Below, one piece after another: positions 2,007 through 60,015 of a DNA stretch of 64,000 bases. The DNA is from Climacium dendroides (taxonomy: Eukaryota; Streptophyta; Bryopsida; Hypnales; Climaciaceae): NCBI GenBank assembly GCA_950106755.1, contig OX467090.1:4216001-4280000 (forward strand), written 5' to 3'. Numbering within the stretch: the first letter of the stretch is position 1; each line of letters begins with the position of its first letter. The position numbers and the translations under genes are program-made. The notes under the pieces were generated by a model, which was not told where the DNA came from, ran no database searches, and saw only the letters and a list, made by a program, of their open reading frames with translations.

Positions 2007-2183
2007 ATGGCAGGTTTGGGTGATGGTGGTGGATCGAAGTGGCGGCCTCCGAGTAGGAGCGCCATGGGCGACGGCGGGTCGTCCAAGTGGAGGCCTCCGT
2101 CGAAGTCTGCGTTGGGCGATGGTGGATCTTCAAAGTGGAGACCTCCGTCGCAGCGTCCGACGGGTTGTTTGCAAGACGACTGA
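2007..2183 (+). CDS. Three-repeat GDGG-SKWRPP micropeptide ORF (58 aa)
   Basis: I do not recognise this family. From the ATG at 2007 the frame encodes 58 residues with three tandem units of 16 residues (cores at about 5-15, 21-31 and 37-47), each reading GDGG-x-SKWRPP followed by S-R/K-S-A. The units differ mostly at third positions (Arg CGG/AGG/AGA; Ser TCG/TCC/TCA; Gly and Asp codons vary), which argues for protein-level constraint in this frame rather than the open antisense frame. A TATA box lies at 1739-1746. There is no signal peptide or membrane segment; it is basic and low in complexity. The stop at 2181 is in frame, but a pyrimidine tract ending in CAG at 2217-2226 could be an intron acceptor, so this may be a first exon. 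The mirror copy is at 55841-56017. Confidence 0.55.
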   Translation: MAGLGDGGGSKWRPPSRSAMGDGGSSKWRPPSKSALGDGGSSKWRPPSQRPTGCLQDD

Positions 2184-2569
2184 GAATTGAAGACAAAGCA
2201 TTACCGCTTGTAGAAATTTCTTTCAGCGCCGGTGCATGCAATTGCCCCTCCAGCAGCAAGCTTCGACTTCGCAATCCAGCTGCAATTGAAGAACGCTCGC
2301 AATTCTTTCCATTGCTGCAATAATGGAAGCTAGAATTGCTAGTGAATGTCAGAGCCAGCGATATGGAAAGCCAAAGGGCCGGGGATACTAAGCTATCCCC
2401 TTCAAAATTCCATTTGGATGATTCTTGAGCTCCGAACTCACAAGTCACAATTAATTTTTTCAGATTGATCTCACTAGTAAGAGTAGTTCCTGATTCTTTA
2501 CGCGCACATCTGAGGATGTTGTGTCGGTGATTTGACAATACCACTCACGTACAGCCTTGAAAGTGGTCA

Positions 2570-4790
2570 TTGGTTCAGTTCAGTACGACTGTAAATATGA
2601 AAGGATTCAGTTGCCTTTCGTTTCCCCTTTCTGGGGTGGAATTTTTGCACTCTTCAATTGAAGGTTGTGCCTCTTTCACAAGGAAATTTAAATGTTCAGG
2701 ATTCTGTTGATTCAAGCGTTTCTGTGTTCGGTATTTGACTGTCGAAGTTGCTCGAGCTCTGGATTTCTGAGCTGAATTTGCAATCTGGTGCACTGGACGT
2801 CAATTTCGTAGAATTTTGTCGAGTAAATCTACTCCTGTCCTTTTAGAGCCTTGTTACAAATTTTGTTGCACTTAATTTCGCACTCTCTTCACAAATTTTG
2901 GTACACTCAATTGTGGCACTATTGACGCCAATGTAATGAAATTGACGATACGGAAAATCTGTGAACGTCTTCACCAGCAGGCCAGTTATGCAAACGTTGC
3001 AATGCCCCATTTCTCCAAATTTTCAGGATTCCTCGGTGGGCAAGTGTTTTTGGTTTTTTTTTGGCACACAATGAAATTTTATTCAACTGAGTCTGAAAAA
3101 AAGATACATCACCCCCCACCACCCCCACCACCTGGAGGCAAAGCCAGGGCAGAGCGCAAGCTTTTAGGAGTAGAACAAGGAGTCGCCTGTGAACTGTCGG
3201 TACGGCGTACTTCTCGGTCAGACTTAGTCTTGTGTTTTGGATTGAATGTTTGTCTTGTACTGGAGTCGAACTCAATTCTAATGCTGCCATAAATCTCACA
3301 GTGAAATTTTCCAGAGAAAGTGTTTGATAACGGATTGCAAAAATTCTCAGCGAAAAAGTGGCGCATCCTTAACGTGCAAGAGTTACAAGAGCCATCATGG
3401 CTGTCCTGTCGCTTTGTCAACTTGAGCCTGTGAGCATGACTTTGTTCTGCTGTAGTCATTATTTGCTTTTTTCTCTGGGGTGGCTCCAAGGATCTGATCG
3501 CAGCTACCCTTTTCTGACAAGTATTGCAAGCTCAATATATTTTGTAGCTACATATGTTTTGGTGATTTACAGAAGAATTCAACAATTCATTTTTTCTTTG
3601 AAATCGGACTAAATGTTCAATTACATTTTCTTCCTAGCTTGACTTTCCTACAAAGCTTGTTTCTACTGTACTCCGAGAAACTTGTTAAGATTTGGCCTTA
3701 TTTAGTGAGAAAGAGTGGTAAGATATGTATACTCATTGTGTGAACCCTGTGGGCACTACACCTATTTAGATTGATCAACTTCTCAATTTTTTTCTTGCAA
3801 TAGAACTGTCTACAAATTTGAAAGCTGTTCACATGTATTTTGGTTAACTCATCCACAGTAAAAACACACTTCATAAGTTTGAATTGGGTGCCATTTGGGG
3901 CATACCTACCGTGGAATTAGTATTGAAAAACAAATCTAGTACCGGTATTATTTCCGAGTGGGGAATTCGGTAAAGAGTTTGAAATTGCTTGATATTGAAC
4001 GATGTCTACAGACTGAAGATATCAGTATTAACTTATTAATTTAGATTCAGTTCGCAATCATCCGCGTTGCAATTCCGTCTACCGACTAACTACAATTCTA
4101 CAAAGTGGAAATTCCATTTTCAATTCATATTTTTCCATTTGCACCAGTCCACACTACCCAGGATGTCAATCTCACCATCACCACCACCGCCGCCAATTGT
4201 TTCTTTTATAAGTCTAATGGGAAAAAATGGTGGAAAGGTGGCAACTCACTTTCTAAAGTGCACAAATACCGTGTCATCACGTGAACCCAAATTGAAAGTT
4301 CATAACCAGTGATGATTTATTAACTCCTGTAAAGGTCACGGTCCTTTGGGTGCACCAAATTTCTAAAACTGTGAGGTGAGTTGTGTTCTAAAGTGCAACA
4401 TAGAAGAAGAAGTTTTTGTGGTGGTCTTCAATTAAAATTCGTACCGTGTGGATGATAGATTAAAATATCATTGTGGTTTGATCTACCACCCCTAGTAGAA
4501 AAGAATTTGTAGGACACTAAGCTACTAAGCTACAATGTCGAAGGTGGATGTCAAAAATCAATATAGAAACCAAACTTTGACATTGTACTAACTTAGTGCT
4601 TCTAAACCTCTTTTCTATTACAAGCGCGTTTTACATTAATATTTAAATGACCAAGTGATCATTCAACGTACACAAGAGATTTCGGGTAGTTTTGCACCAA
4701 GTAAACTTGGGTTGAATGTTCATGAAATTTTGACACAAGGTGTGAATGTGTATCCCCTTAGTGGGAATATAACCTTTTTTTCCAATTGGG
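2570..4790. other. Intergenic region with a G/C-only tract, no gene recognised
   Basis: Mixed-composition DNA downstream of the three-repeat ORF. It includes a C-rich tract (CACCCCCCACCACCCCCACC at about 3108-3127), a GC-richer stretch 3130-3420 and a CAT/CCG trinucleotide run near 4172-4195. Frames up to 126 codons are open in both directions, but none is supported by a motif. Mirrored at about 53230-55450. Confidence 0.3.
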
Positions 4791-4798
4791 TGCCTGGA

Positions 4799-5268
4799 TC
4801 ATGAGTTCTGTTGCCTTGAACTAGATTTAAGTAGCTCCAGCAACTTTGGGCAGCATGTGCAAAACTCCTCTAATTCACAAAATGTGGAAAATACACTGGT
4901 GTAACTGACACGATACAAGATGCAAATGTCAAAAAACAAATCCGCCGTGGCTGCAAAGTAAGCTTGATAGTTGTTGAACTGGTTCAGTTGGTCCCTGGAG
5001 GAACCTGCCTCTTCTCTGTGCTCGCCTGTCGAGGCCACAGCTTGGACCCAACGAAGTTAATTTCCTTCGCAAAGTCCGCTTGCCTCGCTGCCGGCAGACT
5101 TGCCGGGCAAGCTGGGACACCGAATCCGTTGCGTCTTCCGCAAGTAACAAACCATCCAATATCAGAAGAACTTGCTTTCTGCGGATTCAGTGAGATTCTT
5201 CGGGTAAGTCTGTTGCTCCCGATTCGGCCCCACCTGCAGTCCTGCACAGGGCTACTGTAGTCCGTCAC
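4799..5268 (-). other. GC-rich island, possible exon, unassigned
   Basis: A sharp GC-rich block in AT-rich surroundings, with reverse-strand frames of 94 and 79 codons. Both begin at GTG, so no ATG-led product is visible. The right-arm copy (52753-53222) differs by about one base and keeps the frames. A TATA-like TATAAATTATT lies upstream at about 5420 (reverse strand), between two copies of TACTCCGTA. It could be an exon of an unrecognised gene, with weak support. Confidence 0.2.
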
Positions 5269-5731
5269 AGACTTGAAGAATTGCTGCGAAATGCGTGCGT
5301 GGCTCAGGGAATTTGGTCCGGGACTTTCACTGTAACTTATGCTCCGTACAAGCTTAAGTTGGTGATGTGGTGATCACTGAGGAGGGTATAACTGAAGAAT
5401 TACAAGTAAAATACTCCGTAAATAATTTATACTCCGTAATACAGTAAGGAGAGGAATGATATCCAAGGCGGGATTCAGTGCAACGTTCGGAACAACCGGC
5501 GGCTGGTTCAGAGGTAGTCGGTGGAATTGGAAAAAAAACGGTTGCGATTGGAAAACATCGGGAAAAAAAACCCGGTGAAAAAATCTATAAGATTTCTAAT
5601 TTGAGTAAGATATAGAGAAACTAGCCTGACCCGACGCTTTGAAAAAATGGTTCAATTTAATTGGGAATTGAAAGTGAAAGTCGCCTGTAAAAACTCGAGA
5701 AAATTCCAGAACGCTCACTCAGTGGTGGCTT

Positions 5732-5752
5732 TTCTCTTCTCTCTCTCTCTCT
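5732..5752. repeat. CT microsatellite
   Basis: (CT)n run just before a T-rich stretch. Mirrored as GA at about 52269-52290. Confidence 0.8.
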
Positions 5753-6487
5753 GTTGTTTTTTTAATTTTTTTTACACAAATGACATCAGTTGACTGAAAG
5801 TCAGTTCATCCGTCAGAGCGATTGAAAAGTCACAGACTGAATTGGCTGCAGGGTAGCTTGTCTGTGACGGAGGTTTCACGAGAGGTTTCCGTCAGGGAAC
5901 TGAGGCAGGAAGCTCATTCGCCTTCGGTTCTTGTGCATGGATATAACTTTATAAGATTCACAATTTTTTTTTAATATTTTACTATTGAGTTTTACTATTA
6001 CCCATGTGTTTTGGTCAACTTTTTTTTCGGAGAAATGACACATTGAATAGGTGGTCAAAGTAAAAACATATAGCTTCCCATTGCGATTGGCTTGGCTAGG
6101 GGTGGGACTATTTCTATTTGCTTTTGGATTCTAAATGATGCGGCTCTCTTATAGCTCTACATGTTTTCAATAGAAATCTAAAAGCACCCCCTTTGTCATG
6201 ACGTCATGTATTGAATGTGCAAACGTGTGTTCATTGAATTCATTAAATGTCAACTTTCCAACCCAATGCCAACGCTTTCATCCCCAATTCCAAAACTTGA
6301 TATTAGGCTTTGAAAATTTTGGTCTACAAACCATGATAAGTCTGCTTACCTTATACGAAACCGTGTAAGCTATCTACAACAAGAAATATCTTCAATCTCT
6401 TTTTGAAATTGGCTTGAATCACCCTCCAAAGGACTCCTATCCAAAAGTCTGGGTCAGACTTGATTATAACTATAAGATGTGTATATT

Positions 6488-7040
6488 CGGAGGGTACACT
6501 TAATCCTACTACAACAAACAACGTGCAAACAAGTGGTTTCTAATAAACTATAATTTTAACTTCAAATTTTGAACATTGTTTACTAGTGATTATAGGATTC
6601 TACTCCCAAAATTTCAAACTCAAATAAAATATGGAATGATTTTTAGAAGAGGTTAAAAATGCACTAAAATGACATGTTTTTTTAACTCAAATATTTTTAG
6701 AGAACAAAATTAGATGAACATTGCATCAATATTCAACTCAAAATGAGCTTTCAATAGAGTTATTTTTAGGAATTTTTTGTTCATTTTTTAAACAATTTTT
6801 TCTTATATAATATAGGGGTGTGAAAGTTATTTTTTAGTTCTATAATGTATCTTTTTACTTAAATTTTTTTTAATTAATTATTATTAATAAATAAAACATC
6901 AATAATTCAACTTAAATTTTCAAAGTAGGAAAATCTATTCATATTTTTTCATTTAATTTTATTTCAAATTCAAAAAGTATATAGGGGGTCCAAAGTTTTG
7001 TTTGCATGCTAACATCAAAAAAGGGAGAGTGCACCCCCGG
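6488..7040. mobile_element. TIR element, 590-bp family, copy B (left)
   Basis: Outer ends GGAGGGTACACT and AGTGCACCCCCG are inverted. The interior, including TTATATAATATAGGGG near 6803 and ACAACAAACAACGTGCAAAC near the left end, aligns with the element at 16404-16990. No ORF inside, so non-autonomous. The ends are worn compared with copy A. Confidence 0.65.
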
Positions 7041-9238
7041 GTGTATATATTCATTTTTTTCATTGATAAACAACATATAAGAAGATGTAATAAAAATATG
7101 AAATAAAAAACTTTGAAAATAAAATTTAGAAGGCTAAATTGAGCTTGGAATGATGTTAGACCATATGAAGATAGATGTGGTCATTTAGGAATGTACTACT
7201 TCACGAAAAATGAATAGTAACTTGACCAGTATGACAATCGGGGTATTGGGACGCATAATAGTCTGCATTAAGGAAGGTTAAATTTCCAAAATTATAAAGA
7301 TACATTACAAAACGCAACTTAGAATAATAATTTGATGTTGGCTTTGCATAAACATTGTGAAAATATGATCCATAAATTACATCTACATAGACACATGGTT
7401 AGATCACTACTACACTTGTTATTATTTAATATCTATCAATAAAAAAATGTAACTATAAAATTAGATATTTCTTCTAAAATTAAACATAGATTGATTATTT
7501 GTAATATGTGTAAGTTATGAATAATTTTTTCTTTAAGTTTAAAACATTGAGTTCTAATTTTTTTAATGATTATTATATTATTCAAATATTCAAGTCATGT
7601 TTGAAGGATCACTTTTTCAACTAGAAATGTTACATTTTTAGGTGAAACATACTTGTAACTTTTGAACAATAGAATACTTGCAAAGCAAAGTTGTGATGAA
7701 AGATCTATACCATACAAAGGTTAGAAGAAGAATTCATAAACAATGAGACCGATGTGAACACTATGATTTTATGTGGCTCTTTGTGTTCATTCATTATTCA
7801 AAATTTGAACATTTGGTTTTAAGGGTTTAATGTTATGGTTGCTTCATGTATACACCAAACAAATTATGAAGATACCAATTATTCAACAATAGATATTGCA
7901 AGTGCATGCAACATTGCATTGGGTCTTCATTTTTGAATTGCCAAGTGGACTTGTAGTATTGAACAAGTTGACATTCACATTTTAAAAACATTTCTCAAAT
8001 TCATTACTCACTAACTCAAAGCCCTTATAAAAATCTTATTTCCTTTATTTGAAATATACTTTGTATAACATGATCGCACTCTTCAAAATGCACCATCACA
8101 AATTCACAATGCCTCTGCATGATGTGTGTAGTTCCTTGTGATAAAATATTACCAATACTTCATATACAAACGACAATATACATATATCAAACAATAGGTC
8201 ATGAATGTGGTCACTTCTATTTGCATGGTTCCCAAAAGATCAATGAATGTATTGTTTTAAAGTATTGCCCTCTTGACAATGTTTTTTTGGAGAAGGAGTG
8301 GGGGACAACTTATTGCTCAAAAGCTATAAATTTTTTCACTACAAAAAAACAACTGTATAAATGACTTGTCTGCAATGACTGCAAAACAATCATTTTGTAA
8401 TCATTGTTGTGCTTGTAGTCAATGTGGACAAGTCGCATTTGTATCCTTGTTTTTTTGTAGTGTTTTGAAGGATTCTTTGGAGAAAGATTCACCTACTTTC
8501 AATGAACGGAATCACTCAATTGCTACAAAATCTAGGGATAATATTGCTCTATTACAGATTAATTTACACATGGTTGGTTGGATGAAAATGTGTGTTTTAA
8601 TCCACGTTTTGTACATGTTTCATCCACGTAGATGGATGTAAATAGCTTCCCCAATCCACCTGCGCTGCCCCCCAAATAATGAAAAACACACACCTGCTTC
8701 TTCTGTCGTCATTGTCAATGCCGATTGGTTTCCGGAATCAAATGTGAAACTTGTCTGTCACGACACCATCGCAGGTGTCTGTACATCCGCGCGACGACTA
8801 AAGTTGCGATAACCTGCCAGCTCTGTCCCTCCATCAAGACATTGCAGACAGTAGGATCAGTGTTGAAGAAGTTGCACAAAAACGCATTAGTCCTCCGTCT
8901 TACATAAGTTAAATCTCTTCCTAATCCTTCAGAAATCAAACACATTACTAGCTCTTTCTGAAAACGTACCGAGTTCTATTCCATGTGTTTGCCTGGCATT
9001 GTTAGAAATGTACTCAGATACATACCAGGAAGCTAGCTAGTTTGATTGGTTCGTAGAGAAGCTACTAACATTTGTAGAAGCAGGTGTGAACTACTCACGT
9101 ACTCAAGCTTGTTTGGCTTGTTCAGATCGGTTGGACATGCAGTTTCTTGAGTTCTTCAATTCAGAGCACATTCAACGGCACGTGACTGTCTGATTAGGAC
9201 GGCATTGCAGCTTGGGTTGGTTGTAACGTAGATATCCA

Positions 9239-9322
9239 ATGGCCGATACTGCAGGAGATGGCGGTGGTTCCAAGTGGAGACCTCCTCAACACTTCTGCTG
9301 CAGCAGGGAACTTGTAACATAG
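9239..9322 (+). CDS. Single-repeat GDGG-SKWRPP micropeptide ORF (27 aa)
   Basis: The ATG at 9239 starts a 27-codon frame whose residues 6-16 are GDGGGSKWRPP, the same core as the 2007-2183 ORF, followed by a Cys-containing tail (QHFCCSREL). The ATG lies in a good plant context (CCAATGGCC). Function unknown. No clear TATA box is visible upstream. A GT pair in the last codons (CTT|GTAACA) could be a splice donor, in which case this is the start of a longer gene. The surrounding 8.7-11 kb is almost perfectly conserved in the right arm (48384-48467). The spacer copy of this region stops just short of the ORF. Confidence 0.42.
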   Translation: MADTAGDGGGSKWRPPQHFCCSRELVT

Positions 9323-10733
9323 CTTCACATGAAGCAGGCCAAGTATCGAGCACATTGGTACCCAGAAACCAGGAATCGGTGCATTGCTGGCGTCGTTGAT
9401 GACTCACCTTGTACAAAAATTTTGAGCAATTAGCGGCAATGAGGTGGATCACAAGCTAGTAGTTCACTGGAACCGAATTATGTAAATAGACTCACACATT
9501 TTCTTATGAGGATTATTTCGCAGAGAGAATGGCTGAGGCAGGATTTGGGGTTCTGTGTAATCCAAATCAATTGCAGCTTGTATGGGTACGAGACAGTCTT
9601 GGGTGCATTGCTTGAGCTAGTCATGCTTTCAGAAACCGGATTACACTTTACACTCAACGCGCTCTAATTGCGCACTCTGTTTTTTGGCACATTCCCTGCA
9701 CATGCCCAGAATTTCTTAGGTTGTGGACAAATCGAATTGCAGAAGTTCCAAGTGAATGTCAAGTTTTGAACACTGAGCATGCTGCATTCGGAAGCATATT
9801 TTTTCCTGTTTGGAAACCCATGATGCAATTAGAGAGGGTTGGCTGGTTGAGTGTTCTTTGAGTATGTGGGGTTGCTGAAAACGACTCACGACATAGTTTG
9901 AATGTGTGAAAAGCGTACCAAAATCAATGATAGTGTGAGAAATGTGCAAGATATTCTAGAATGTTGTTTCTGAGAAGGAATATAATTTAGGAAGTCCAAG
10001 TAAGTGCAAATTACCGTAATTGTTTTTCACTCTTGAAGAATCACAAAGAATGGTGTCAATGTTTTGTTGCACGCTCAATTTGATGCACTAGGGAAGGGTA
10101 CGTTGAGAGTTCTTGTTCAAACATGTCACTCACGATCTAGAGTAAAGCGTGCTACAATCCAGAAAATTACATTTGAAAGAAGTCCGAGTGAAGATTACAG
10201 TCACGACTTCCACTCCCCAATAAACACAAAAAGTGGTGTCAATGTTTTTCTTAGCCTTCAATCTATGCTGCCGAAGTCTGTGATGCGATTGGAGAGGATT
10301 GAGAGTTATTGTTCCAACATGTCACTCACGACACAGTTTGCATTTGCGACAAGCGTGCTACATTCAATGACGATGAGTAATGCAAGTGTGCAGGATATTC
10401 GAACCTATGTCCTTTTATGAGGAAATACCATTATAGAAGTGAGCACTTTGCACATTTGGAGGTTGAACTCCACCAAACATGATTGTCGTCACCGTTTTGC
10501 TGATGTATTCCACTTGAATCGTTGCTAGACTCCCTTCTGCAACTTCTGCAAGTTGACTGCAATTGCGACTGTTCACTTGCTCCAAATGTTCACCATCAGC
10601 AGCGGATGGATCGGAAGTTTCAGTTCCTTTGCACTTGCATCCCGTCCAATCCGAAAAGCCGATGGAAAGGGCAACGGGGTGGCCGGCAACACGTAGAACT
10701 GTATATCAGCAGGCAGTTGTCAGCTTCGCTCTG

Positions 10734-10759
10734 GGGCCGTGAACTATTTCGCACGGCCC
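10734..10759 (+). other. GC-rich hairpin
   Basis: Perfect 8-bp stem GGGCCGTG / CACGGCCC with a 10-nt loop, conserved in the right-arm and spacer copies. Confidence 0.6.
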
Positions 10760-10978
10760 GGGGCTCATGCCCGTTACGGTTGAAGGCAGGGCCACACGAA
10801 AGCTGCAAAACAGACGGACACTATCACTCATCACTGGGAAACGGATTTAAGAGAGTATTAAGAGTGAACCCTCTTCCCGTGCCACCCAAATTCCAAGTTC
10901 GCCCCGCATCTACCTGTGGTGTTCATTTTGTTCTGAAATACTTCCCTTGTGTACATAAGGTTTCTGCTTTTAGTGTGG

Positions 10979-11004
10979 TTTTAGGGTTTAGGATTTTTAG
11001 GGTC
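10979..11004 (-). promoter_or_regulatory. Telo-box (AAACCCTAAA)
   Basis: On the reverse strand the site reads CCTAAACCCTAAAAC with a second ACCCTAAAA beside it. AAACCCTA motifs are known in plant promoters of growth and translation genes. Kept at 46702-46727 and 29145-29170. No downstream gene is identified, so function is open. Confidence 0.4.
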
Positions 11005-11169
11005 TAGAGTTAGCCCAACAATCATAGTGAATAACAAGTATGCTTGAGTAGCTCTACAGAACAAGCACAAAAGATGTAGAAGGGAAATTTCATAGTTCTT
11101 GAAACCCAAATTAGGGTGATTGCAAGAAATCCTTGTCCTTTTTTTTTGTGCCCATGGCCTTGGACAAGT

Positions 11170-13160
11170 ATTTTTTTTTCTCATAACTTTTTGCATCATA
11201 TGTCAATTACATACTAAAGTTGAAATGAAGGTACATGTGGTAGTTGCAAACATATAAGAAATTTTTTCAATTTTTAAAATTAGTTTATTATTTTTAAACA
11301 CCACAAAAATGGATATATACCTTTGCTATTTGGGGGGGGGGGAGGTAATACTATTGTCAACCCAAGAATATGAATTTGAACTTCAAAATTGGGAGATGAG
11401 GATTCCTATTAAAGTTACACAAGTCTACGAAGAGATTTTCTAAAAATAACAAAATATCCACCTTCCACATGCACTCAAAGTGACTAAAGTGCACTACCTT
11501 TGGGCAAAGTACAAAGAACAAAATTTGTTTTTCACAGACACAAATGGTTGAAAAAGAGCATTTTCAAGTTAGGAATTTTTTAAAATTTTTAGTTTGTTAA
11601 AAAAAATGTACTATTTTTTAGAAGTTAAACATCAAATGGTCTATTTTTTGATATTTCCCATCTCTATTTATTTGTACATAACTTTTAGAGCTAAGTTTTT
11701 CTAGGTTGAATTTTTGTACCCTACTATTTTGAATGCTTTACAAATAATCCTTATTTTATTTCATTTTAAAATATTTATTCAAAAAGTCACAATATTCACT
11801 AAAATAATTAGGTTGTTTTAAGATAAAAATGGAAAGTGTTTCTCGCAAAGACCCTTGAAACAATTGCTAACTATATTTTGGCACTCATTCTTTAGTAGTT
11901 GAAATTATTTCCATACTTTTTTTTGCTATAATTTACTTCAATTGCATTAGATGATGTTTGAAGCCTCGAAAGGGCTGTTTAAGGCCAGTTCCCTAGGTTG
12001 AGAGCATGTTTGAATATAAAAAATTAAAATTTCTTAAATTTTAATTTTAAAATTTTAATTAACCAATTAATAAATATTATTTGACATGGCAGGGTCTCGA
12101 CCACATCAAACTGCTAATTTGGTAGAGTTCCTAGAGTTTACCTCAGTCTAAGAACTCATGGAAATCCGTAGTCTTCTAATGGCCTCAAATTTTATGTAAT
12201 GATTCAAAATTTTAAGAATAAAGATTTCATGGCTATTATAAATTCTTAATATTTTTTGAATTTTTCCTATATAGAGACATTCCCCAATTGAATGTCACAT
12301 TTATTTATTTGTTTATTTGCATATCATTTTTAACTTGAAAAATTAAATTTAGATTTAAAAATTGGAATATAAGGTCATCTTCAAAGTCGTCATCATAAAT
12401 TGGAATTCAAAATCATCTTCGAAGGACATCATATTCATTATTTTGAGACAAAGGGGCCCCCTCAAAATAATATTATCCATTTCGACACCCAAAAATCGAA
12501 TTACAATTGTAGCCAATTTAACTCAATAAACACAAAATTTTATAGTTGTAGGCCACAATTTCCATTAAAATGAGAGTTTTGTGAATTTGAAGGTCCTCCA
12601 ATACATATAGTTTACAAAAATAAAAGTTCTCTGATTTATACAAGTGAATATTGTGTCTCTAATTGTATACTAAGTCATGAGCTGAACGCTTGATTATAAG
12701 GGCTGGACTATTTATCTCATTTAGGCAGTTGGAGTTCAATTCCCGTTGAATTTGTATGAGTGGCTGAGAGAAATACATGACTTAGAACTGCTATGTGAAC
12801 CTAGCAGGCAGGAAAGTTGCAACAACCAACGAGCCCCCTATCCATAAATGTGACAAGTGCTTAGTATGTTAACAAAATAAAAAGTGGTTATATCCACTAT
12901 CCATTTTTTCCCAATTGTATGTTTTTTCAAATGCAATTTTCACCAACAAGGACAAAGTAAAATAAAATCAATTATAAAAAATATTTCAAAATAAAATAAT
13001 ACATATATTAATAAAATATAGATGCATTGTCATTATAAAACAAAAATATTCTACAAAAGATTTATTGAATAGAAATCTATGAAACTAAATCAAATCAACA
13101 CCATCTGTTCCAATTGACATAAAAACATTCTATTGGTTATACATTTCATTACTTAGGAAT
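11170..13160. other. AT-rich intergenic DNA
   Basis: No gene seen. Contains a G10-11 homopolymer near 11333 and a repeat-like stretch at 12660-12790 with a weak tRNA-like look (see rejected). Mirrored at 44190-46200. Confidence 0.6.
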
Positions 13161-13164
13161 ATAT

Positions 13165-14724: not shown

Positions 14725-14858
14725 TATATATTCAATATTCAATATTAAAAATTCAAAACCATTAACATATATGTCTATATAATTCAAATACATCAAGCAT
14801 ATGAAGCGAGACTCTAGTTGATGACTTCAATTTGTGCAGTTGGGATTTTTATCAATCA

Positions 14859-19837: not shown

Positions 19838-19889
19838 TTTCATAAGAAGAGGCATTCGTCATAAAAGAACAGGACAGATGTTGAAGCTC

Positions 19890-46300: not shown

Positions 46301-46640
46301 TACTAAGCATGTTCAACATTTTATAAATTTGCACACCAATATCTAAAAAATAAAGAAAATTATATTTGAAGCTTTTTTTTCTTATACTTGGTGTATTAAG
46401 TAGAGCAATTATGGGCAATTTAGTTAAAATGGTGGCATTCCTATAGAATGGTACTACATTCCATGAAAATGGCAGTGAATATGTCGAAGATGACACGACA
46501 TTCCATTGGAATGGCACACTGAGTATGGAAAATGGCAAAAAAATCACCACCATTTTAATGAAATTCACCATAATTATTTTTTACAATCACCCTAATTTGG
46601 GTTTCAAGAACTATGAAATTACCCTTTTACATCTGTTATG
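46200..46640. repeat. Duplication flanking a MITE
   Basis: The block CAATCACCCTAATTYGGG...AGAGCTACT is present at about 46229-46302 and again at about 46584-46662, with the MITE-bearing stretch between. The left arm has one copy only (about 11040-11125). Confidence 0.65.
46411..46571. mobile_element. MITE, 160-bp ATGGG family, right-arm copy
   Basis: Same insertion as 28853-29013 including the AATT duplication (46407-46410, 46572-46575). Absent from the left arm. Confidence 0.78.
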
Positions 46641-48383: not shown

Positions 48384-48467
48384 CTATGTTACAAGTTCCC
48401 TGCTGCAGCAGAAGTGTTGAGGAGGTCTCCACTTGGAACCACCGCCATCTCCTGCAGTATCGGCCAT
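48384..48467 (-). CDS. Single-repeat GDGG-SKWRPP micropeptide ORF (27 aa), right arm
   Basis: Exact mirror of 9239-9322, with ATG at 48467-48465 on the reverse strand. The product is the same, including the core GDGGGSKWRPP and Cys-Cys tail. See the left-arm entry for the caveats: no visible TATA box and possible splicing near the stop. Confidence 0.42.
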   Translation of the reverse strand: MADTAGDGGGSKWRPPQHFCCSRELVT

Positions 48468-50467: not shown

Positions 50468-50612
50468 GTTGTCATACTGGACAAGTTACTATTCATTTTT
50501 CGTCCTGTAGGACAAGTTACTATTCATCAAATGTACTTGAGAGGTACATTTGATGAATAGTAACTCGTCCTACAAGACAAGAAATGAATAGTAACTTATC
50601 CAGTATGACAAC
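50468..50612. repeat. 69-bp-arm hairpin, right arm only
   Basis: Arms 50468-50536 and 50544-50612 are inverse with about five mismatches, loop TTGAGAG. Each arm contains the unit GGACAAGTTACTATTCAT twice. The left arm keeps only one outer half-unit (7204-7237). Confidence 0.85.
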
Positions 50613-50830
50613 TAGGGCCAATACTTTAAAAATTCCTAGTTTTATCATAAAGTGTCCAAACAAATTTACTAAATTTTTAAAAAAAAATCCCTTATGACTC
50701 CCAACAATATCAAACAAAATCTAGATAATTTAATAAAGGAGACCATGCTCAAATATTCATCCACTTTTATTATAGATTTTGGCAATACAAGATATAGACA
50801 CCTTGTAGGAAATTTATGTAGAACATTCCT
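50613..50830. other. Right-arm-specific AT-rich stretch
   Basis: Together with the hairpin it makes up the roughly 315 bp absent from the left arm. No gene seen. Confidence 0.5.
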
Positions 50831-50977
50831 AAATGACCACATCCATCTTCATATGGTCTAACATCATTCCAAGCTCAATTTAGCCTTCTAAATTTTATTT
50901 CCAAAGTTTTTTATTTCATATTTTTATTACATCATATTATATGTTGTTTATCAATGAAAAAAATGAATATATACATG

Positions 50978-51534
50978 CGGGGGTGCACTCTCCCTTTTTT
51001 TGATGTTAGCATGCAAACAAAACTTTGGACCCCCTATTTATTTTTTGAATTTTAAATAAAATTAAATGAAAAATATGAATAGATTTTCCTACTTTAAAGA
51101 TTTATGTTTTGAATTATTGATATTATATTTATTAATAATAATTAATTAAAAAAATTTGAAGTAAAAAGATACATTATAGAACTAAAAAATAACTTTCACA
51201 CCCCTATATTATATAAGAAAAAATTGTTTAAAAAATGAACAAAAAATTCCTAAAAATAACTCTCTATTGAAAGCTCATTTTGAGTTGAATATTGATGCAA
51301 TGTTCATCTAATTTTGTTCTCTAAAAATATTTGAGTTAAAAAAACATGTCATTTTAGTGCATTTTTAACCTCTTCTAAAAATCATTCCATATTTTATTTG
51401 AGTTTGAAATTTTGGGAGTAGAATCCTATAATCACTAGTAAACAATGTTCAAAATTTGAAGTTAAAATTATAGTTTATTAGAAACCACTTGTTTGCACGT
51501 TGTTTGTTGTAGTAGGATTAAGTGTACCCTCCGA
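50978..51534. mobile_element. TIR element, 590-bp family, copy B (right)
   Basis: Mirror of 6488-7040. Ends GGGGGTGCACTC and AGTGTACCCTCC. Confidence 0.65.
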
Positions 51535-54500
51535 ATATACACATCTTATAGTTATAATCAAGTCTGACCCAGACTTTTGGATAGGAGTCCTTTGGAGGGT
51601 GATTCAAGCCAATTTCAAAAAGAGATTGAAGATATTTCTTGTTGTAGATAGCTTACACGGTTTCGTATAAGGTAAGCAGACTTATCATGGTTTGTAGACC
51701 AAAATTTTCAAAGCCTAATATCAAGTTTTGGAATTGGGGATGAAAGCGTTGGCATTGGGTTGGAAAGTTGACATTTAATGAATTCAATGAACACACGTTT
51801 GCACATTCAATACATGACGTCATGACAAAGGGGGTGCTTTTAGATTTCTATTGAAAACATGTAGAGCTATAAGAGAGCCGCATCATTTAGAATCCAAAAG
51901 CAAATAGAAATAGTCCCACCCCTAGCCAAGCCAATCGCAATGGGAAGCTATATGTTTTTACTTTGACCACCTATTCAATGTGTCATTTCTCCGAAAAAAA
52001 AGTTGACCAAAACACATGGGTAATAGTAAAACTCAATAGTAAAATATTAAAAAAAAATTGTGAATCTTATAAAGTTATATCCATGCACAAGAACCGAAGG
52101 CGAATGAGCTTCCTGCCTCAGTTCCCTGACGGAAACCTCTCGTGAAACCTCCGTCACAGACAAGCTACCCTGCAGCCAATTCAGTCTGTGACTTTTCAAT
52201 CGCTCTGACGGATGAACTGACTTTCAGTCAACTGATGTCATTTGTGTAAAAAAAATTAAAAAAACAACAGAGAGAGAGAGAGAAGAGAAAAGCCACCACT
52301 GAGTGAGCGTTCTGGAATTTTCTCGAGTTTTTACAGGCGACTTTCACTTTCAATTCCCAATTAAATTGAACCATTTTTTCAAAGCGTCGGGTCAGGCTAG
52401 TTTCTCTATATCTTACTCAAATTAGAAATCTTATAGATTTTTTCACCGGGTTTTTTTTCCCGATGTTTTCCAATCGCAACCGTTTTTTTTCCAATTCCAC
52501 CGACTACCTCTGAACCAGCCGCCGGTTGTTCCGAACGTTGCACTGAATCCCGCCTTGGATATCATTCCTCTCCTTACTGTATTACGGAGTATAAATTATT
52601 TACGGAGTATTTTACTTGTAATTCTTCAGTTATACCCTCCTCAGTGATCACCACATCACCAACTTAAGCTTGTACGGAGCATAAGTTACAGTGAAAGTCC
52701 CGGACCAAATTCCCTGAGCCACGCACGCATTTCGCAGCAATTCTTCAAGTCTGTGACGGACTACAGTAGCCCTGTGCAGGACTGCAGGTGGGGCCGAGTC
52801 GGGAGCAACAGACTTACCCGAAGAATCTCACTGAATCCGCAGAAAGCAAGTTCTTCTGATATTGGATGGTTTGTTACTTGCGGAAGACGCAACGGATTCG
52901 GTGTCCCAGCTTGCCCGGCAAGTCTGCCGGCAGCGAGGCAAGCGGACTTTGCGAAGGAAATTAACTTCGTTGGGTCCAAGCTGTGGCCTCGACAGGCGAG
53001 CACAGAGAAGAGGCAGGTTCCTCCAGGGACCAACTGAACCAGTTCAACAACTATCAAGCTTACTTTGCAGCCACGGCGGATTTGTTTTTTGACATTTGCA
53101 TCTTGTATCGTGTCAGTTACACCAGTGTATTTTCCACATTTTGTGAATTAGAGGAGTTTTGCACATGCTGCCCAAAGTTGCTGGAGCTACTTAAATCTAG
53201 TTCAAGGCAACAGAACTCATGATCCAGGCACCCAATTGGAAAAAAAGGTTATATTCCCACTAAGGGGATACACATTCACACCTTGTGTCAAAATTTCATG
53301 AACATTCAACCCAAGTTTACTTGGTGCAAAACTACCCGAAATCTCTTGTGTACGTTGAATGATCACTTGGTCATTTAAATATTAATGTAAAACGCGCTTG
53401 TAATAGAAAAGAGGTTTAGAAGCACTAAGTTAGTACAATGTCAAAGTTTGGTTTCTATATTGATTTTTGACATCCACCTTCGACATTGTAGCTTAGTAGC
53501 TTAGTGTCCTACAAATTCTTTTCTACTAGGGGTGGTAGATCAAACCACAATGATATTTTAATCTATCATCCACACGGTACGAATTTTAATTGAAGACCAC
53601 CACAAAAACTTCTTCTTCTATGTTGCACTTTAGAACACAACTCACCTCACAGTTTTAGAAATTTGGTGCACCCAAAGGACCGTGACCTTTACAGGAGTTA
53701 ATAAATCATCACTGGTTATGAACTTTCAATTTGGGTTCACGTGATGACACGGTATTTGTGCACTTTAGAAAGTGAGTTGCCACCTTTCCACCATTTTTTC
53801 CCATTAGACTTATAAAAGAAACAATTGGCGGCGGTGGTGGTGATGGTGAGATTGACATCCTGGGTAGTGTGGACTGGTGCAAATGGAAAAATATGAATTG
53901 AAAATGGAATTTCCACTTTGTAGAATTGTAGTTAGTCGGTAGACGGAATTGCAACGCGGATGATTGCGAACTGAATCTAAATTAATAAGTTAATACTGAT
54001 ATCTTCAGTCTGTAGACATCGTTCAATATCAAGCAATTTCAAACTCTTTACCGAATTCCCCACTCGGAAATAATACCGGTACTAGATTTGTTTTTCAATA
54101 CTAATTCCACGGTAGGTATGCCCCAAATGGCACCCAATTCAAACTTATGAAGTGTGTTTTTACTGTGGATGAGTTAACCAAAATACATGTGAACAGCTTT
54201 CAAATTTGTAGACAGTTCTATTGCAAGAAAAAAATTGAGAAGTTGATCAATCTAAATAGGTGTAGTGCCCACAGGGTTCACACAATGAGTATACATATCT
54301 TACCACTCTTTCTCACTAAATAAGGCCAAATCTTAACAAGTTTCTCGGAGTACAGTAGAAACAAGCTTTGTAGGAAAGTCAAGCTAGGAAGAAAATGTAA
54401 TTGAACATTTAGTCCGATTTCAAAGAAAAAATGAATTGTTGAATTCTTCTGTAAATCACCAAAACATATGTAGCTACAAAATATATTGAGCTTGCAATAC

Positions 54501-55840
54501 TTGTCAGAAAAGGGTAGCTGCGATCAGATCCTTGGAGCCACCCCAGAGAAAAAAGCAAATAATGACTACAGCAGAACAAAGTCATGCTCACAGGCTCAAG
54601 TTGACAAAGCGACAGGACAGCCATGATGGCTCTTGTAACTCTTGCACGTTAAGGATGCGCCACTTTTTCGCTGAGAATTTTTGCAATCCGTTATCAAACA
54701 CTTTCTCTGGAAAAAAAATTTCACTGTGAGATTTATGGCAGCATTAGAATTGAGTTCGACTCCAGTACAAGACAAACATTCAATCCAAAACACAAGACTA
54801 AGTCTGACCGAGAAGTACGCCGTACCGACAGTTCACAGGCGACTCCTTGTTCTACTCCTAAAAGCTTGCGCTCTGCCCTGGCTTTGCCTCCAGGTGGTGG
54901 GGGTGGTGGGGGTGATGTATCTTTTTTTCAGACTCAGTTGAATAAAATTTCATTGTGTGCCAAAAAAAACCCAAAAACACTTGCCCACCGAGGAATCCTG
55001 AAAATTTGGAGAAATGGGGCATTGCAACGTTTGCATAACTGACCTGCTGGTGAAGACGTTCACAGATTTTCCGTATCGTCAATTTCATTACATTGGCGTC
55101 AATAGTGCCACAATTGAGTGTACCAAAATTTGTGAAGAGAGTGCGAAATTAAGTGCAACAAAATTTGTAACAAGGATCTAAAAGGACAGGAGTAGATTTA
55201 CTCGACAAAATTCTACGAAATTGACGTCCAGTGCACCAGATTGCAAATTCAGCTCAGAAAACCAGAGCTCGAGCAACTTCGACAGTCAAATACCGAACAC
55301 AGAAACGCTTGAATCAACAGAATCCTGAACATTTAAATTTCCTTGTGAAAGAGGCACAACCTTCAATTGAAGAGTGCAAAAATTCCACCCCAGAAAGGGG
55401 AAACGAAAGGCAACTGAATCCTTTCATATTTACAGTCGTACTGAACTGAACCAATGACCACTTTCAAGGCTGTACGTGAGTGGTATTGTCAAATCACCGA
55501 CACAACATCCTCAGATGTGCGCGTAAAGAATCAGGAACTACTCTTACTAGTGAGATCAATCTGAAAAAATTAATTGTGACTTGTGAGTTCGGAGCTCAAG
55601 AATCATCCAAATGGAATTTTGAAGGGGATAGCTTAGTATCCCCGGCCCTTTGGCTTTCCATATCGCTGGCTCTGACATTCACTAGCAATTCTAGCTTCCA
55701 TTATTGCAGCAATGGAAAGAATTGCGAGCGTTCTTCAATTGCAGCTGGATTGCGAAGTCGAAGCTTGCTGCTGGAGGGGCAATTGCGTGCACCGGCGCTG
55801 AAAGAAATTTCTACAAGCGGTAATGCTTTGTCTTCAATTC

Positions 55841-56017
55841 TCAGTCGTCTTGCAAACAACCCGTCGGACGCTGCGACGGAGGTCTCCACTTTGAAGATCC
55901 ACCATCGCCCAACGCAGACTTCGACGGAGGCCTCCACTTGGACGACCCGCCGTCGCCCATGGCGCTCCTACTCGGAGGCCGCCACTTCGATCCACCACCA
56001 TCACCCAAACCTGCCAT
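55841..56017 (-). CDS. Three-repeat GDGG-SKWRPP micropeptide ORF (58 aa), right arm
   Basis: Exact mirror of 2007-2183, ATG at 56017. The three 16-residue units are all kept, as is the TATA box (56278-56285, reverse strand). I see no difference in the ORF between the arms. The opposite strand is open for 220 codons across this block, but that frame begins with a non-ATG codon and has no family support, so I treat it as a shadow. Confidence 0.55.
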   Translation of the reverse strand: MAGLGDGGGSKWRPPSRSAMGDGGSSKWRPPSKSALGDGGSSKWRPPSQRPTGCLQDD

Positions 56018-56277
56018 GCTCTCGATCGGTCACAACTTCTTGTATCAAAATCTCGGGGCAAATCTCTTACAAAGACTTTGAGAGTTTCCACCCAAGCTCT
56101 GTATCAATCAAACAACAGCTCTACGATTATATTTCAAGTTAGTCTTGCAGATTGAACTACGTCGAGTTTCTCGATCCCTAGCTTTGTGCAGTCGCAGTAC
56201 GTATCCCTTCTTCAGTTTGTATTGCAATTGATCACTCAGTCAGAATGAGGGAATGTTTTGGTTCATTCCAGTGGTGG

Positions 56278-56285
56278 TATTTATA
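56278..56285 (-). promoter_or_regulatory. TATA box, right-arm copy
   Basis: TATAAATA on the reverse strand, mirror of 1739-1746, 268 bp upstream of the ATG at 56017. Confidence 0.6.
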
Positions 56286-57692
56286 TTCTCTTGATCTCCA
56301 ATTTCACGTCAACTCACGCTGTTCTGTTCAAACGCGGAGAACTGACGCCTTGCCAGACAAGATAAATTGATGAGACCCAGACGGAGCTTGAGATCGAATT
56401 CCAGTGAAACTAGTTGAAGAATATTCTGGTGTGAAAACAAGTTGGGAACGCGAAGACGGGTTTCTGACGACGACCCAGAAATCGCAGCTTGACATGTCCT
56501 CCGGGAGGTTGGGAGGACGGGACTTTCCCAGGAAAAGGAATCGCAAATCAATTCAAGAGAGTTGGTCGAATTCAGACGGATAGGCCTTCGGCACAGCTGA
56601 TTGCCTGCCGCTGGAAGTTCCGCCATGGGGACCCAAGCTAGCTCGTGCGCCATCGCCAGCTGCCAAGGGCGTTGAAGAATTTCCTTCGATCGGGAGTTCG
56701 CAGGAAGGGAGAGGCGGACTGGCGTTCCCGGAAGGAGAGAGGAGGAGGACTTTGCGGGAAGTTGGATGGGGTGGAGCGCTCAAGCAGGAGGAGCCCAGAA
56801 ACCTCCTCCAACGCAGAGGTACATTCCCAGAGGTACATTCTGCTTTGTTATTGCACCGTCCATGTACAAACAGAGTACATTTCAGGAGGCGGACGCTTGT
56901 AGCGCGGATGCCATTTCAAGTTCAAAAGTCCATAACTAATTTCACAAAGCTTCAATTAATATGAAAACAACTTGAGTTAAATGCCAATTTCATTTGGCTT
57001 TCAAGGAAAATTTTCTGGAAAAATATTTCAAGACGTCTAACCTCCCAAAATTAATTTCTGACTGTTAACCCCTAAAGTTCCAAGGCCATTCTTTTTTCAA
57101 AAACAACTCAAAATTTGCCTTGTCAAACAATTTTAACCTTGTCAAACAATTTTTTGTGAAAAAATTGTGAAAATTGCATTAAAAAATGAATCCTATAAGT
57201 TATTTTTTCAAGAGGATGATCTAATTGCTTAAAAAATAAGATTGTCCATAACTTTCACATAACAAATTTAAATGGAATAAATCAAATCATCCCACAATCA
57301 TAGATAAATTTATAATCTGTGAGAAAAAAAAGAAAAAAATCAAATTTTTTTTTTGTGAAATGCAAAAGAAGTACAAAGTCAAGAAAAGCAATGGAATTGC
57401 TACCTTTATAACATCACCATATTGATCCTCTTTAATATCACCTCAATTGCAATGACTATATTATTTCTATAATATCACTCTTTGTAAAAATTGATATTAC
57501 AAAGGTGATTGTGAACTGCTACTCTATTTCAGTAATATCACATTATGTGAAAATATGATTTCTACGTAACTATGCATGATTGGAAATATTTTTATAAAAA
57601 TATAAAAATAATTATTTTAAAGACTTATTGAAATCGTTATCATGCATTCTACTCAAATATATCAAATTTTTACTAATATGTGGTACAATGAA

Positions 57693-57721
57693 TGCGTAGC
57701 ATAGCACGCACGAGCCCCTAG
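57693..57721 (+). mobile_element. Helitron-like 3' end
   Basis: Short stem TGCGT...ACGCA, then CGAGCCCCTAG followed by T. Helitrons end in a short hairpin and CTRR and insert before T. Mirror at 284-312. No 5' end or RepHel coding region was found. Confidence 0.25.
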
Positions 57722-58004
57722 TATTAATGGTAGCATTTGTGATATTATAGAGGGACTTATGATTTTAGTAGTATGATGGATAAATGCAAAAATTAATCTT
57801 CTACTTTGTAGATGATTAATATTGTATTTAATGAGCTCATTTGGGATCACTTGAAGAAAATGAAGTTTTTTTTACTACAAGAACAAATTTATTTATTGAA
57901 TGGTACAAATTTGGGAACTCATAGTCATTGTGAACAAGTTGTTCTTGATAATGTAGTCATAAAGGACAATGGGTTGTTTTTCATCCAACATCCTAGTTGG
58001 AACT

Positions 58005-58740
58005 TTGTTGACATATTCTTCTTATATTTTTCATCCAACATAAAGGCCTCTAGTCTTGATTCTCAAAGTTATCATCCAAAAATTTAGATGAATTGTGAAA
58101 AATTTCCCTCCTTGATTTGCTTTTTTCAAAATTTGTATATTACAAGAGGGAATTTTAGATAATCCCATCTAAGAAGGTCTTTATGTTGCAATTATGCAAA
58201 TTTGTCTCTCGAGAAAAGAAGAATATATCCTCAACATTCAAGGATTGCTACCATATGAGTATAGAATGTAGAGCTTAGAATACAAAGTTTAGATTTGGTG
58301 AGCCTAAAGCTTAATTTAGAGGTTATTCTTTTATAACATAGGCACCTTTGAAAGTTGTAAGGAGGTATTTTATAACCATCAAAGATCTAAAGGTATCCTA
58401 TAACCACCAAAAGTGTTCAACACTCCATACTCTCACCCTATGTTCATATAAGGTAAGAGATTCTAAAAGCGCACAAGCTCTAAAATTGGCCACTTCCTCA
58501 ATTGCAAACTATTCCTTTCTTGTTGCCTTCAACAATGTGCAATCAATGTACATTTTGAGGATGTGGGTGATAGTTTGTAGCCCCATGTCATTTCAACTTT
58601 TAAATTTTATAACTAATTCCATAGAGCTGCAAAAAATATGAAACCACTTGGGTTAGATTTCAATTCCACTTGTCTTTGAAGTAAAATTTACTGAAAACTA
58701 TTTCAAGAAGCTCCACCTCCCCAAAATTCAGTTTCAGCTC
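58005..58740. other. Flank outside the visible right arm
   Basis: Single copy in this window. 58620-58745 resembles 56955-57075 in the same orientation, so it is a diverged dispersed repeat. No gene recognised. Confidence 0.5.
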
Positions 58741-58744
58741 TTAA

Positions 58745-59958
58745 ATGGGCGATTTACAAACCTCCTACCTTACAAGCTTTGCTCCCCAACACTCCCATGA
58801 AGTACATGAAGTACATGCTTTTCAGCAGAAAAAAGAAGCAATCCCGGCTACTTCATACACTTGTTCCGGAAATGTTTTTTTACTTCGCTTTAGCAAATCT
58901 GTTAAGCTTCCGTGCGAACTGAAGAGTCGGTCGGCAGAAGTTTTGTTTTTTGTTTTTTTGACACATTCAAGTGACGGCGGCAGACGATTTCATTGTCATT
59001 GTTGCTGCTGAGTTAGGGTTCTCCACGGAAGTGTGCTGGCTCGCCCCACAGGCAATGAACTCCGTCAATTGTGGGGTCATCAAAAAGCTTTTTCGTTGTC
59101 AACTGTCAACTGAACTTCTCAGCGTGTCGTTTGTCATCAACAGTGGTTAAGACTCGGCAATTGGTGAAAGGCACAATTGCAGTTATCATCATAATTACCC
59201 CGACACAAATAGATGTGTATCTTCGTTGCAAGTTAGGACGCAACTGCACTAGCCAGTTCTGCAGTAACAGCCTCTGGTCAGCCAGTTCGTAAATTTTGGA
59301 GTCTCCAGTGACCCGTGTTGCTTATGTGGCGATGGTTTATGTGATAAAAGACGCCATCCCAGACTATTTTAAACTATATTCGGTGAATTTCCGAAGTCCC
59401 AAATTTCCTACACTCGTGGCAAAGGTCTGCGGGAGGTCGGTTTTTTATGATAGATCGCCAGAACAATTACAGCCACTGGTTCCTTGCTCAACAAGAATGT
59501 TCAATTCTTTTTTTTTGAATTTCTTATTTCCTGTTACTTCATTTGGAGATGTACACAGAGGGATGATGGATTGTGGCGCAAGAATGAAGAAATTCGATGA
59601 CAGTCAACTGAAGGAGACCAGGAACAGTGTTGCCGACGATGCCGCCAAGAAGACTTGAACTTCAAGCTAACGAGATTTGTGTAGACAAGAACTACATCAG
59701 TCCATTTCTACTTGAGCAAAGCTTGTCCGAATCGTATACGGTATTTCTCTCAGACACTTGGGCCTTGACTATTTAGAGTTAACAATTGCCAACAGTCTTC
59801 AGAGGTTCTTCACTCACAACAAACTGCCGTGTCCGTGTTTCGGAGCTAAATTCAGAGGCACTTTTCCAAGAGGTGGACAATTTACACCAGCGAGAATTTT
59901 CAGGTTCCCAACGATGCCATTTCTAATCAACAGGATTAGAATTACGTTGCCGAGCAGA
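58745..59958 (+). other. Higher-GC region upstream of the 59959 ORF
   Basis: Several short frames (88, 73, 120 and 85 codons) without recognised domains, some not ATG-led. In composition it resembles the other SKWRPP modules, so it is probably the promoter and leader of the 59959 ORF. Confidence 0.25.
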
Positions 59959-60015
59959 ATGGGTTCCGAAGGAGACGGAGGGAACTCACGGTGGAATCCA
60001 CCGCGCATCAGGTGA
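59959..60015 (+). CDS. GDGG-SRWNPP short ORF (18 aa) in the right flank
   Basis: ATG at 59959, 18 residues: MGSEGDGGNSRWNPPRIR. It is the most diverged family member, with K to R and R to N in the core but GDGG, S, W and PP retained. It lies outside the visible inverted repeat. The stop overlaps a good donor (ATCAG|GTGATT at 60012), in the same phase as the donor of the 33929 copy, so it may be the first exon of a spliced gene. No convincing TATA box or downstream exon was identified. The upstream frame stays open to about 59758 but without family support. Confidence 0.35.
   Translation: MGSEGDGGNSRWNPPRIR

What the first reader, a model, noticed from the sequence alone, without database searches (positions are those of the whole stretch)
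2007..60015. A family of very short ORFs sharing a GDGG-x-S/T-K-W-x-PP core
Five different members at eight loci in 64 kb all carry GDGG, a K/R-W pair and PP in the same spacing, usually just after an M-A-x start. Third-position changes dominate between members (several Ser, Arg, Gly, Asp and Pro codons are used), and flanking sequence outside the core is unrelated between the 2007, 9239, 33929 and 59959 types. That is what protein-level constraint predicts. I know no named plant peptide or domain with this core.
Basis: partly seen in the sequence, partly recalled or inferred. Interest (0 to 1): 0.88.

Follow-up and report, generated by a model that had tools for sequence, protein, structure and literature searches.

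The report
Moss tandem-repeat micropeptide gene family
A chromosome of what appears to be a moss carries dozens of copies of tiny genes whose products repeat one short, strictly conserved peptide (GDGGxSKW, usually then xPP), and likely relatives occur in peat moss, so this looks like an undescribed family of small proteins rather than chance.

Summary
All eight ORFs exist as described; three pairs are mirror copies on the arms of a giant inverted repeat, leaving five independent members. The 412.6 Mb genome, inferred to be a moss, holds 135 GDGGxxKW codon matches against 2 for the reversed pattern; I count 73 loci, 65 in 1.34 Mb of one contig, not each checked for an intact ORF. The 38 distinct ORFs read have one to four units just after a start codon. 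Near flanks fall into 13 (upstream) or 11 (downstream) groups while the core is shared. In the largest subfamily, core differences at codon positions 1/2/3 are 0.9/3.0/15.9 %; flanks differ by 32-39 % in every phase. This is protein-level selection on the unit; tails are less constrained. Homologues exist elsewhere, with weak matches to annotated, unnamed Sphagnum proteins that have three degenerate units. No Pfam family, solved structure or paper was found, and no prokaryotic or viral relative was established. Best reading: a moss family of leaderless, disordered, mostly multi-unit micropeptides whose unit probably acts as a docking motif (inferred); a damage-released signal peptide is the main rival. 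Expression was not testable.

The parts
2007..2183 (+). 58-aa ORF with three GDGGxSKWRPP units (type 2007)
   Evidence: translation; TATAAATA 268 bases upstream at 1739
55841..56017 (-). mirror copy of the 2007 ORF, identical protein
9239..9322 (+). 27-aa ORF with one unit (MADTA type)
48384..48467 (-). mirror copy of the 9239 ORF, identical protein
24609..24749 (-). 46-aa ORF with one unit (subfamily III), mirror copy of 33929, identical protein
27129..27251 (+). 40-aa ORF with one unit (subfamily III)
33929..34069 (+). 46-aa ORF with one unit (subfamily III)
59959..60015 (+). 18-aa ORF with one unit (MGSE type); a match at the mirrored place lies outside the window at C39:4214012
1739..1746 (+). 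TATA-box-like TATAAATA upstream of the 2007 ORF (putative promoter)
   Evidence: sequence match only
26820..26833 (+). TATA-like CACTATAAGAAGGA upstream of 27129; the same 14-mer lies at 33615 upstream of 33929
   Evidence: sequence match only
26921..26992 (+). possible 5'UTR intron of 27129, from donor-like GTAAGT to acceptor-like GTGTTTCCAG; similar signals at 33711-33789 for 33929; a second acceptor-like GATTCCAG lies at 27098-27105
   Evidence: consensus match only, no transcript
1..25120 (+). left arm of the giant inverted repeat carrying the ORFs (with gaps between blocks)
33558..58005 (-). right arm of the giant inverted repeat (with gaps between blocks)

Best explanation
These are genes of a moss family of micropeptides. 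SHOWN: one to four copies of an 8-residue unit G-D-G-G-x-S-[KR]-W (usually followed by xPP) sit right after a start codon, and in the two multi-unit subfamilies selection keeps the unit at protein level while flanks, and more or less the spacers and tails, drift. INFERRED: the organism is a moss; the ORF is translated in the cytosol, since no hydrophobic leader is seen by inspection, the model is disordered, and base +4 is G in 35 of 38 ORFs. The unit probably works as a short linear docking motif for one conserved partner, and repeating it within a protein and amplifying the gene raise valency and dosage. Motif-centred constraint, variable spacer length, no evident cleavage site shared between units, and loose tails fit this better than an excised hormone.
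For: Genome excess 135 vs 2. 70 profile matches. 84 units, 50 distinct 24-mers; Gly codons 1 and 3 never change at positions 1-2 though the pattern allowed Asp there; pN/pS 0.14. Codon-phase rates with flank control: subfamily I core 0.009/0.030/0.159 vs upstream 0.327/0.323/0.327; subfamily II core 0.042/0.035/0.253 vs upstream 0.471/0.459/0.480. Near flanks in 13 and 11 groups with a shared core. Homologues in other assemblies: P0001 E 6.7e-10 and P0002 7.7e-7 from a single query; 13 of 21 listed proteins at E<=1e-3 in the last search, whose profile held eight of them already. Annotated Sphagnum fallax and S. magellanicum proteins with three unit-like segments, 0 of 5000 shuffles as good for each. 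Disordered model, mean pLDDT 60.3, pTM 0.14.
Against: No transcript or peptide evidence was available. Loci were found by protein or codon patterns and ORFs without an upstream Met were dropped and not counted, which favours intact ones; the pattern itself fixed D and W. Subfamily III evolves almost neutrally over the ORF (pN/pS 0.86) with out-of-phase stretches, and its core has too few changes to judge. Some copies are decaying (L037, L038, second copy in L058). The Sphagnum matches are weak on their own (E 0.07 and 0.8). Subfamily I spacers and tail also show phase bias (0.051/0.058/0.167), so constraint there is not confined to the unit. Nothing identifies a binding partner; docking is inference by elimination.
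Confidence: 0.45

Rival explanations
1. Precursor of a damage-released or unconventionally secreted signal or defence peptide (systemin- or Pep-like in logic): a cytosolic precursor with repeated active units, perceived outside cells after wounding.
For: Repeated near-identical units, no leader by inspection; cationic members with W and PP (subfamily I, charge +5 to +8 apart from a 16-aa remnant frame at +3); large gene amplification.
Against: No basic or other cleavage site shared between units by inspection; subfamily II is neutral to acidic (-6 to 0); the unit sits at the N-terminus; no literature match.
Confidence: 0.25
2. Hydrophilin / LEA-like desiccation protectants: glycine-rich, disordered, repeated hydrophilic units.
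For: Gly above 6 % in 38 of 38 ORFs, GRAVY below -1 in 26 of 38; disordered model.
Against: GRAVY criterion fails in 12 of 38, including all seven single-unit subfamily III ORFs; Trp in each ORF; sequence-exact constraint on one 8-mer is not needed for a bulk protectant.
Confidence: 0.1
3. Precursor peptides of a ribosomally made cyclic peptide (BURP-type or other plant RiPP), the unit being core plus recognition sequence.
For: Repeated Trp-containing segments in short ORFs; the genome has BURP genes, many in an array (33 matches).
Against: None of the 33 BURP matches lies on C39; the would-be core hardly varies between members. Other RiPP enzymes were not searched for.
Confidence: 0.06
4. Not a protein family: a satellite, transposon fragment or RNA element that happens to be open.
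For: Many copies, much of the copy number due to segmental inverted amplification; no transcript data.
Against: Phase-specific substitution with phase-free flanks, diverse synonymous codons for the same residues, core shared between near flanks that do not align, start Met one to seven residues before the first unit in the 38 ORFs kept, homologues in other assemblies, no Rfam match in the window.
Confidence: 0.05
5. Upstream ORFs that control a downstream main ORF on the same transcript.
For: Very short, and within a few hundred bases of TATA-like sites in several loci; two tandem ORFs in L041.
Against: Of 36 window frames of 110 aa or more, ten were tested and none reached a Pfam cut-off; up to four units per ORF is unlike known conserved uORFs (recalled). 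Downstream regions were not tested systematically.
Confidence: 0.09

Closest known systems
Sphagnum fallax BDL97_07G095400 and S. magellanicum CY35_07G103200 (hypothetical proteins; P0016, P0019)
   Same: three unit-like segments each (GDGGSSNYKPP, GDGKGSSWRPP / GDGKGSPWNPP, GDGGGSKIKPG); no Pfam domain
   Different: 128 and 121 aa, with 56 and 49 residues before the first unit; Trp replaced by Tyr or Ile in two of three units; match alone weak (E 0.07 and 0.8)
Plant peptide-hormone precursors with repeated domains (CEP, CLE, HypSys) and leaderless ones (systemin, Pep); recalled, not compared here
   Same: short genes, repeated conserved motif, variable spacers
   Different: no shared motif that I can recall; no signal peptide by inspection (unlike CEP, CLE, HypSys); motif at the N-terminus, not the C-terminus
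BURP-type cyclic-peptide precursors (recalled)
   Same: short repeated Trp-containing segments
   Different: the ORFs are too short for a BURP domain and no BURP match lies on contig C39
Hydrophilins / LEA proteins (recalled criteria)
   Same: Gly-rich, hydrophilic, disordered, some with tandem repeats
   Different: Trp in each ORF, exact 8-mer, 12 of 38 fail the hydrophilicity criterion

Membership tests
Secreted plant signalling peptides (CLE, CEP, RALF and others) | N-terminal signal peptide | tested here: not met
   By inspection of the 38 distinct ORFs no hydrophobic leader follows the start Met; no signal-peptide predictor was available, and an unseen upstream coding exon is not excluded
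Secreted plant signalling peptides (CLE, CEP, RALF and others) | known family motif or Pfam domain | tested here: not met
   0 Pfam matches for 3 members and 7 homologues at E<=10
Hydrophilins | glycine above 6 % | tested here: met
   38 of 38 ORFs; criterion recalled
Hydrophilins | high hydrophilicity (GRAVY below about -1), little Trp | tested here: not met
   26 of 38 below -1, 12 of 38 not; one to four Trp in each of the 38 ORFs
BURP-type RiPP precursors | BURP domain in the precursor or a BURP gene beside it | tested here: not met
   33 BURP matches in the genome, none on C39
Transposable element | shared flanks or terminal repeats around dispersed copies | tested here: not met
   near flanks form 13 upstream and 11 downstream groups; terminal repeats were not searched for separately
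GDGG-W moss micropeptides (family proposed here) | one or more G-D-G-G-x-S-[KR]-W units in a short ORF under protein-level constraint | tested here: met
   (subfamilies I and II; III inconclusive for the core)
GDGG-W moss micropeptides (family proposed here) | transcribed and translated | not testable with these tools
   no RNA-seq, ribosome or peptide data at hand

The most novel reading that the evidence does not exclude
GDGGxSKW is the signature of an undescribed moss-wide class of leaderless multivalent micropeptides, at least as old as the split between peat mosses and the host lineage. In this species it has been raised to about 70 loci by palindromic amplification, with cationic (subfamily I) and acidic (subfamily II) members kept as convergent neighbours that may act as a pair on one partner.
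Probability: 0.35. Interest if true: 0.75.

Novelty: new variant of a known kind. Interest (0 to 1): 0.62.

Why it matters
Genes this short are often missed by annotation, yet here an 8-residue motif has been held at protein level while its synonymous codons diverged widely, beside flanks that no longer align, and apparently across mosses. That points to a specific, old function in a lineage whose peptide biology is little known, and gives a compact testable object: one synthetic unit peptide and one knock-out. The palindromic arrays also offer a case of amplified micropeptide genes.

Tried and rejected
Chance or low complexity: rejected (control; expectation 0.63). Satellite, transposon or RNA element: rejected as main explanation. 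Prokaryotic or viral origin: the codon pattern with PP gave 0 stretches in viral contigs and 3 in genome contigs; I judge three hits in 257 Gb to be chance, but did not examine them. P0009 as a phage or plasmid protein: no match; it resembles the Sphagnum proteins instead. Resurrection-plant CDT-1 peptide: a literature lead only, nothing to link it. BURP cyclic peptides: not near. AlphaFold model: uninformative, disordered. P0010 and P0020 (one clear unit each, E 2.6 and 1.2) are left undecided.

A result partly against 'unrelated flanks': comparing 1200 bases upstream and 800 downstream, joined 22 ORFs (subfamilies I and III and the 2007 type) in one cluster. One search shows why: of the three linking pairs, I-III is linked by distant dispersed repeats in other positions and orientations, and 2007-I mainly by the units themselves plus one weak 141-base match (69.5 %) about 300 bases after the ORF, so a common origin of the 2007 type and subfamily I is possible. 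One search also shows one 93-base repeat shared by the downstream flanks of L041 and L030.

Papers: seven searches; only listings and abstract starts were seen, no paper was opened.
Full report
WHAT WAS CLAIMED AND WHAT IS THERE. The eight ORFs exist at the stated places. Self-comparison of the window shows one giant inverted repeat, arms 1-25120 and 58005-33558, with main blocks of 98.9, 99.4, 95.4, 93.9 and 95.4 % identity. Three ORF pairs (starts 2007/56017, 9239/48467, 33929/24749) are therefore mirror copies with identical proteins, and the 59959 copy has a match at the mirrored place just outside the window, C39:4214012. Five members are independent: 2007, 9239, 27129, 33929 and 59959. 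The 27129 and 33929 ORFs are themselves diverged paralogues.

MORE THAN CHANCE. The window is G000:C39:4216001-4280000 in a 412.6 Mb genome of 123 contigs. The codon pattern for GDGGxxKW occurs 135 times (67 + 68), against 2 for the reversed pattern; independent bases at 38.1 % GC predict 0.63. A profile search with the 58-aa member gave 70 matches. I set aside two antisense rows and one stop-riddled match (C3:5405710) and added six loci that only the pattern searches show. That makes 73 loci: 65 between 3.358 and 4.701 Mb of C39 (counted), and 8 elsewhere (two each on C1, C35 and C38, one on C3, one at 12.1 Mb of C39). I read the ORFs of only part of them; the searches say counts are lower bounds.

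ANATOMY. I collected 38 distinct ORFs from the loci in hand; frames without a Met upstream of the unit were dropped there and not counted. Subfamily I: MAVM-GDGGSSKWRPPSKASPM-GDGGSSKWRPPSKSSPM-GDGGSSKWRPPSKRQ, with two or three units 17 residues apart. Subfamily II: MGAE-GDGGGSKWNPS-(spacer)-GDGGSSRWRPPS-(Cys- and Asp-rich spacer)-GDGGSSKWRPGKGF, three units or four (L044). Subfamily III: one unit, then a variable tail. Others are L049 (three units without PP), L051, L041 (two tandem ORFs of 23 and 24 aa) and the window's 2007, 9239 and 59959 types. The chosen Met lies four residues before the first unit in 31 of 38, five in 2, seven in 3 and one in 2. Codon 2 is Ala in 22 and Gly in 13 of 38, and base +4 is G in 35 of 38. 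The PP is not universal.

SELECTION. Among 84 units there are 50 distinct 24-mers. At the first and third Gly codons positions 1 and 2 never vary, while third positions of the Gly codons are highly diverse (0.68-0.74); pooled pN/pS is 0.14. These units were collected with a protein pattern that itself fixed the D and the W and limited other places, which biases that figure. So I also aligned whole loci with 300 bases upstream and 200 downstream and counted pairwise differences by codon phase. Subfamily I (13 loci): upstream 0.327/0.323/0.327, downstream 0.372/0.349/0.388, core 0.009/0.030/0.159, spacers and tail 0.051/0.058/0.167. Subfamily II (10 loci): upstream 0.471/0.459/0.480, downstream 0.210/0.201/0.179, core 0.042/0.035/0.253, spacers and tail 0.108/0.101/0.107. 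Subfamily III (7 loci): core 0.071/0/0.036, too few changes to judge; tail 0.107/0.148/0.079 with out-of-phase stretches; ORF-wide pN/pS 0.86. So selection holds the unit in I and II; spacers are phase-biased in I and not in II; tails of III look nearly free. The sequence pairs are not independent, so these are rates, not tests. Some copies are decaying: L038 has a shortened first unit, L037 has changed units, and the second copy in L058 has lost most of its third unit.

CONTEXT. With the nearest flanks compared separately, the 38 ORFs fall into 13 upstream and 11 downstream groups (the ten subfamily II ORFs alone make five upstream groups but one downstream group). Between clusters, similarity is confined to the ORF and about ten bases before the ATG, apart from one 93-base repeat; links that merged subfamilies I, III and the 2007 type there are dispersed repeats, the units themselves and one weak 141-base match. 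The 2007 type has TATAAATA 268 bases upstream. In subfamily III a TATA-like site lies 306-316 bases upstream in 5 of 7, GTAAG at 208-228 bases in 6 of 7, and GTTT[CT]CAG at 132-152 bases in 7 of 7, suggesting a 5'UTR intron. These are consensus matches only. Ten of the window's 36 frames of 110 aa or more were tested and none reached a Pfam cut-off. The array from 4.41 to 4.60 Mb alternates strand with a period of about 44.6 kb (coordinates). Around 3.69 and 3.91-4.04 Mb, the eight subfamily I-II neighbours within 3 kb that I read off one search are all convergent; they are probably copies of one ancestral pair.

THE HOST. Plastid PsaA from contig C123 matches best the PDB entries 8htu and 6l35/7ksq/7kux/7xqp. 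I recall these as Physcomitrium patens photosystem I; the output gives no organism. With rbcL features I recall, this makes the host a moss; this is inference. A second plastid set on C88 differs.

RELATIVES ELSEWHERE. One 56-aa query found P0001 (E 6.7e-10) and P0002 (7.7e-7) among 5.8 billion proteins. Profiles that included earlier hits found ten proteins and then 21, 13 of them at E<=1e-3; eight of the 13 were in that profile already. Two hits are named: BDL97_07G095400 of Sphagnum fallax (E 0.07) and CY35_07G103200 of S. magellanicum (E 0.8), both hypothetical or uncharacterized proteins. Each has three unit-like segments, and none of 5000 shuffles of either did as well; shuffles control for composition, not for having been picked by similarity, and all 21 proteins passed that test. 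P0021 has five GDGGGSKW segments in a row (E 2.5), organism unknown. P0017 closely resembles the C3 member L049. The organisms of the unnamed hits are unknown. The codon pattern has 0 matches in viral contigs and 3 stretches in the prokaryotic collection.

WHAT IT DOES. Shown: a short-ORF family with protein-level selection on an 8-residue unit. Inferred: translation in the cytosol, and disorder (pLDDT 60.3, pTM 0.14). Most likely mechanism, inferred by elimination: the unit is a short linear motif that docks on one partner, repeated for valency and amplified for dose. A damage-released peptide signal is the main rival. Hydrophilin, RiPP precursor and uORF readings are weaker; the element reading is nearly excluded. 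No search here found the family in print: in the held library, GDGGSSKW, six shorter motif strings, four Sphagnum locus-tag strings, and GDGG with Physcomitrella and peptide gave 0 papers.

Noticed in passing
window 1-25120 / 33558-58005: A giant inverted repeat, arms 93.9-99.4 % identical in the main blocks, with an unpaired centre; it seems to reach beyond the window on the left.
   Followed up: partly
G000:C35:13.5-15.4 Mb: BURP-domain genes occur as many copies with equal or nearly equal scores on both strands, often alternating, so palindromic amplification may be a habit of this genome, not special to the micropeptides.
   Followed up: no
G000:C39:3.69 and 3.91-4.04 Mb: Cationic subfamily I and acidic subfamily II genes: the eight I-II neighbours within 3 kb read are all convergent.
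   Followed up: partly
G000:C88 and C123: Two different plastid rbcL/psaA/psaB sets are in the assembly; C88 may be a contaminant or a foreign plastome.
   Followed up: partly
window 22454-22613, 28853-29013, 33395-33557, 35991-36151, 46411-46571: A dispersed repeat of about 161 bases, 83-86 % alike; three of the five copies (28853, 33395, 46411) lie at or near edges of repeat blocks.
   Followed up: no
window 1882-2544 (-) and 55480-56142 (+): A 220-aa stop-to-stop frame runs antisense over the 2007-type ORF in both arms; perhaps a by-product of the repeated codons.
   Followed up: no
L041 (G000:C39:3354000-3362000): Two ORFs of 23 and 24 aa, each with one unit and no PP, lie in tandem with their units 316 bases apart on one strand.
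   Followed up: partly
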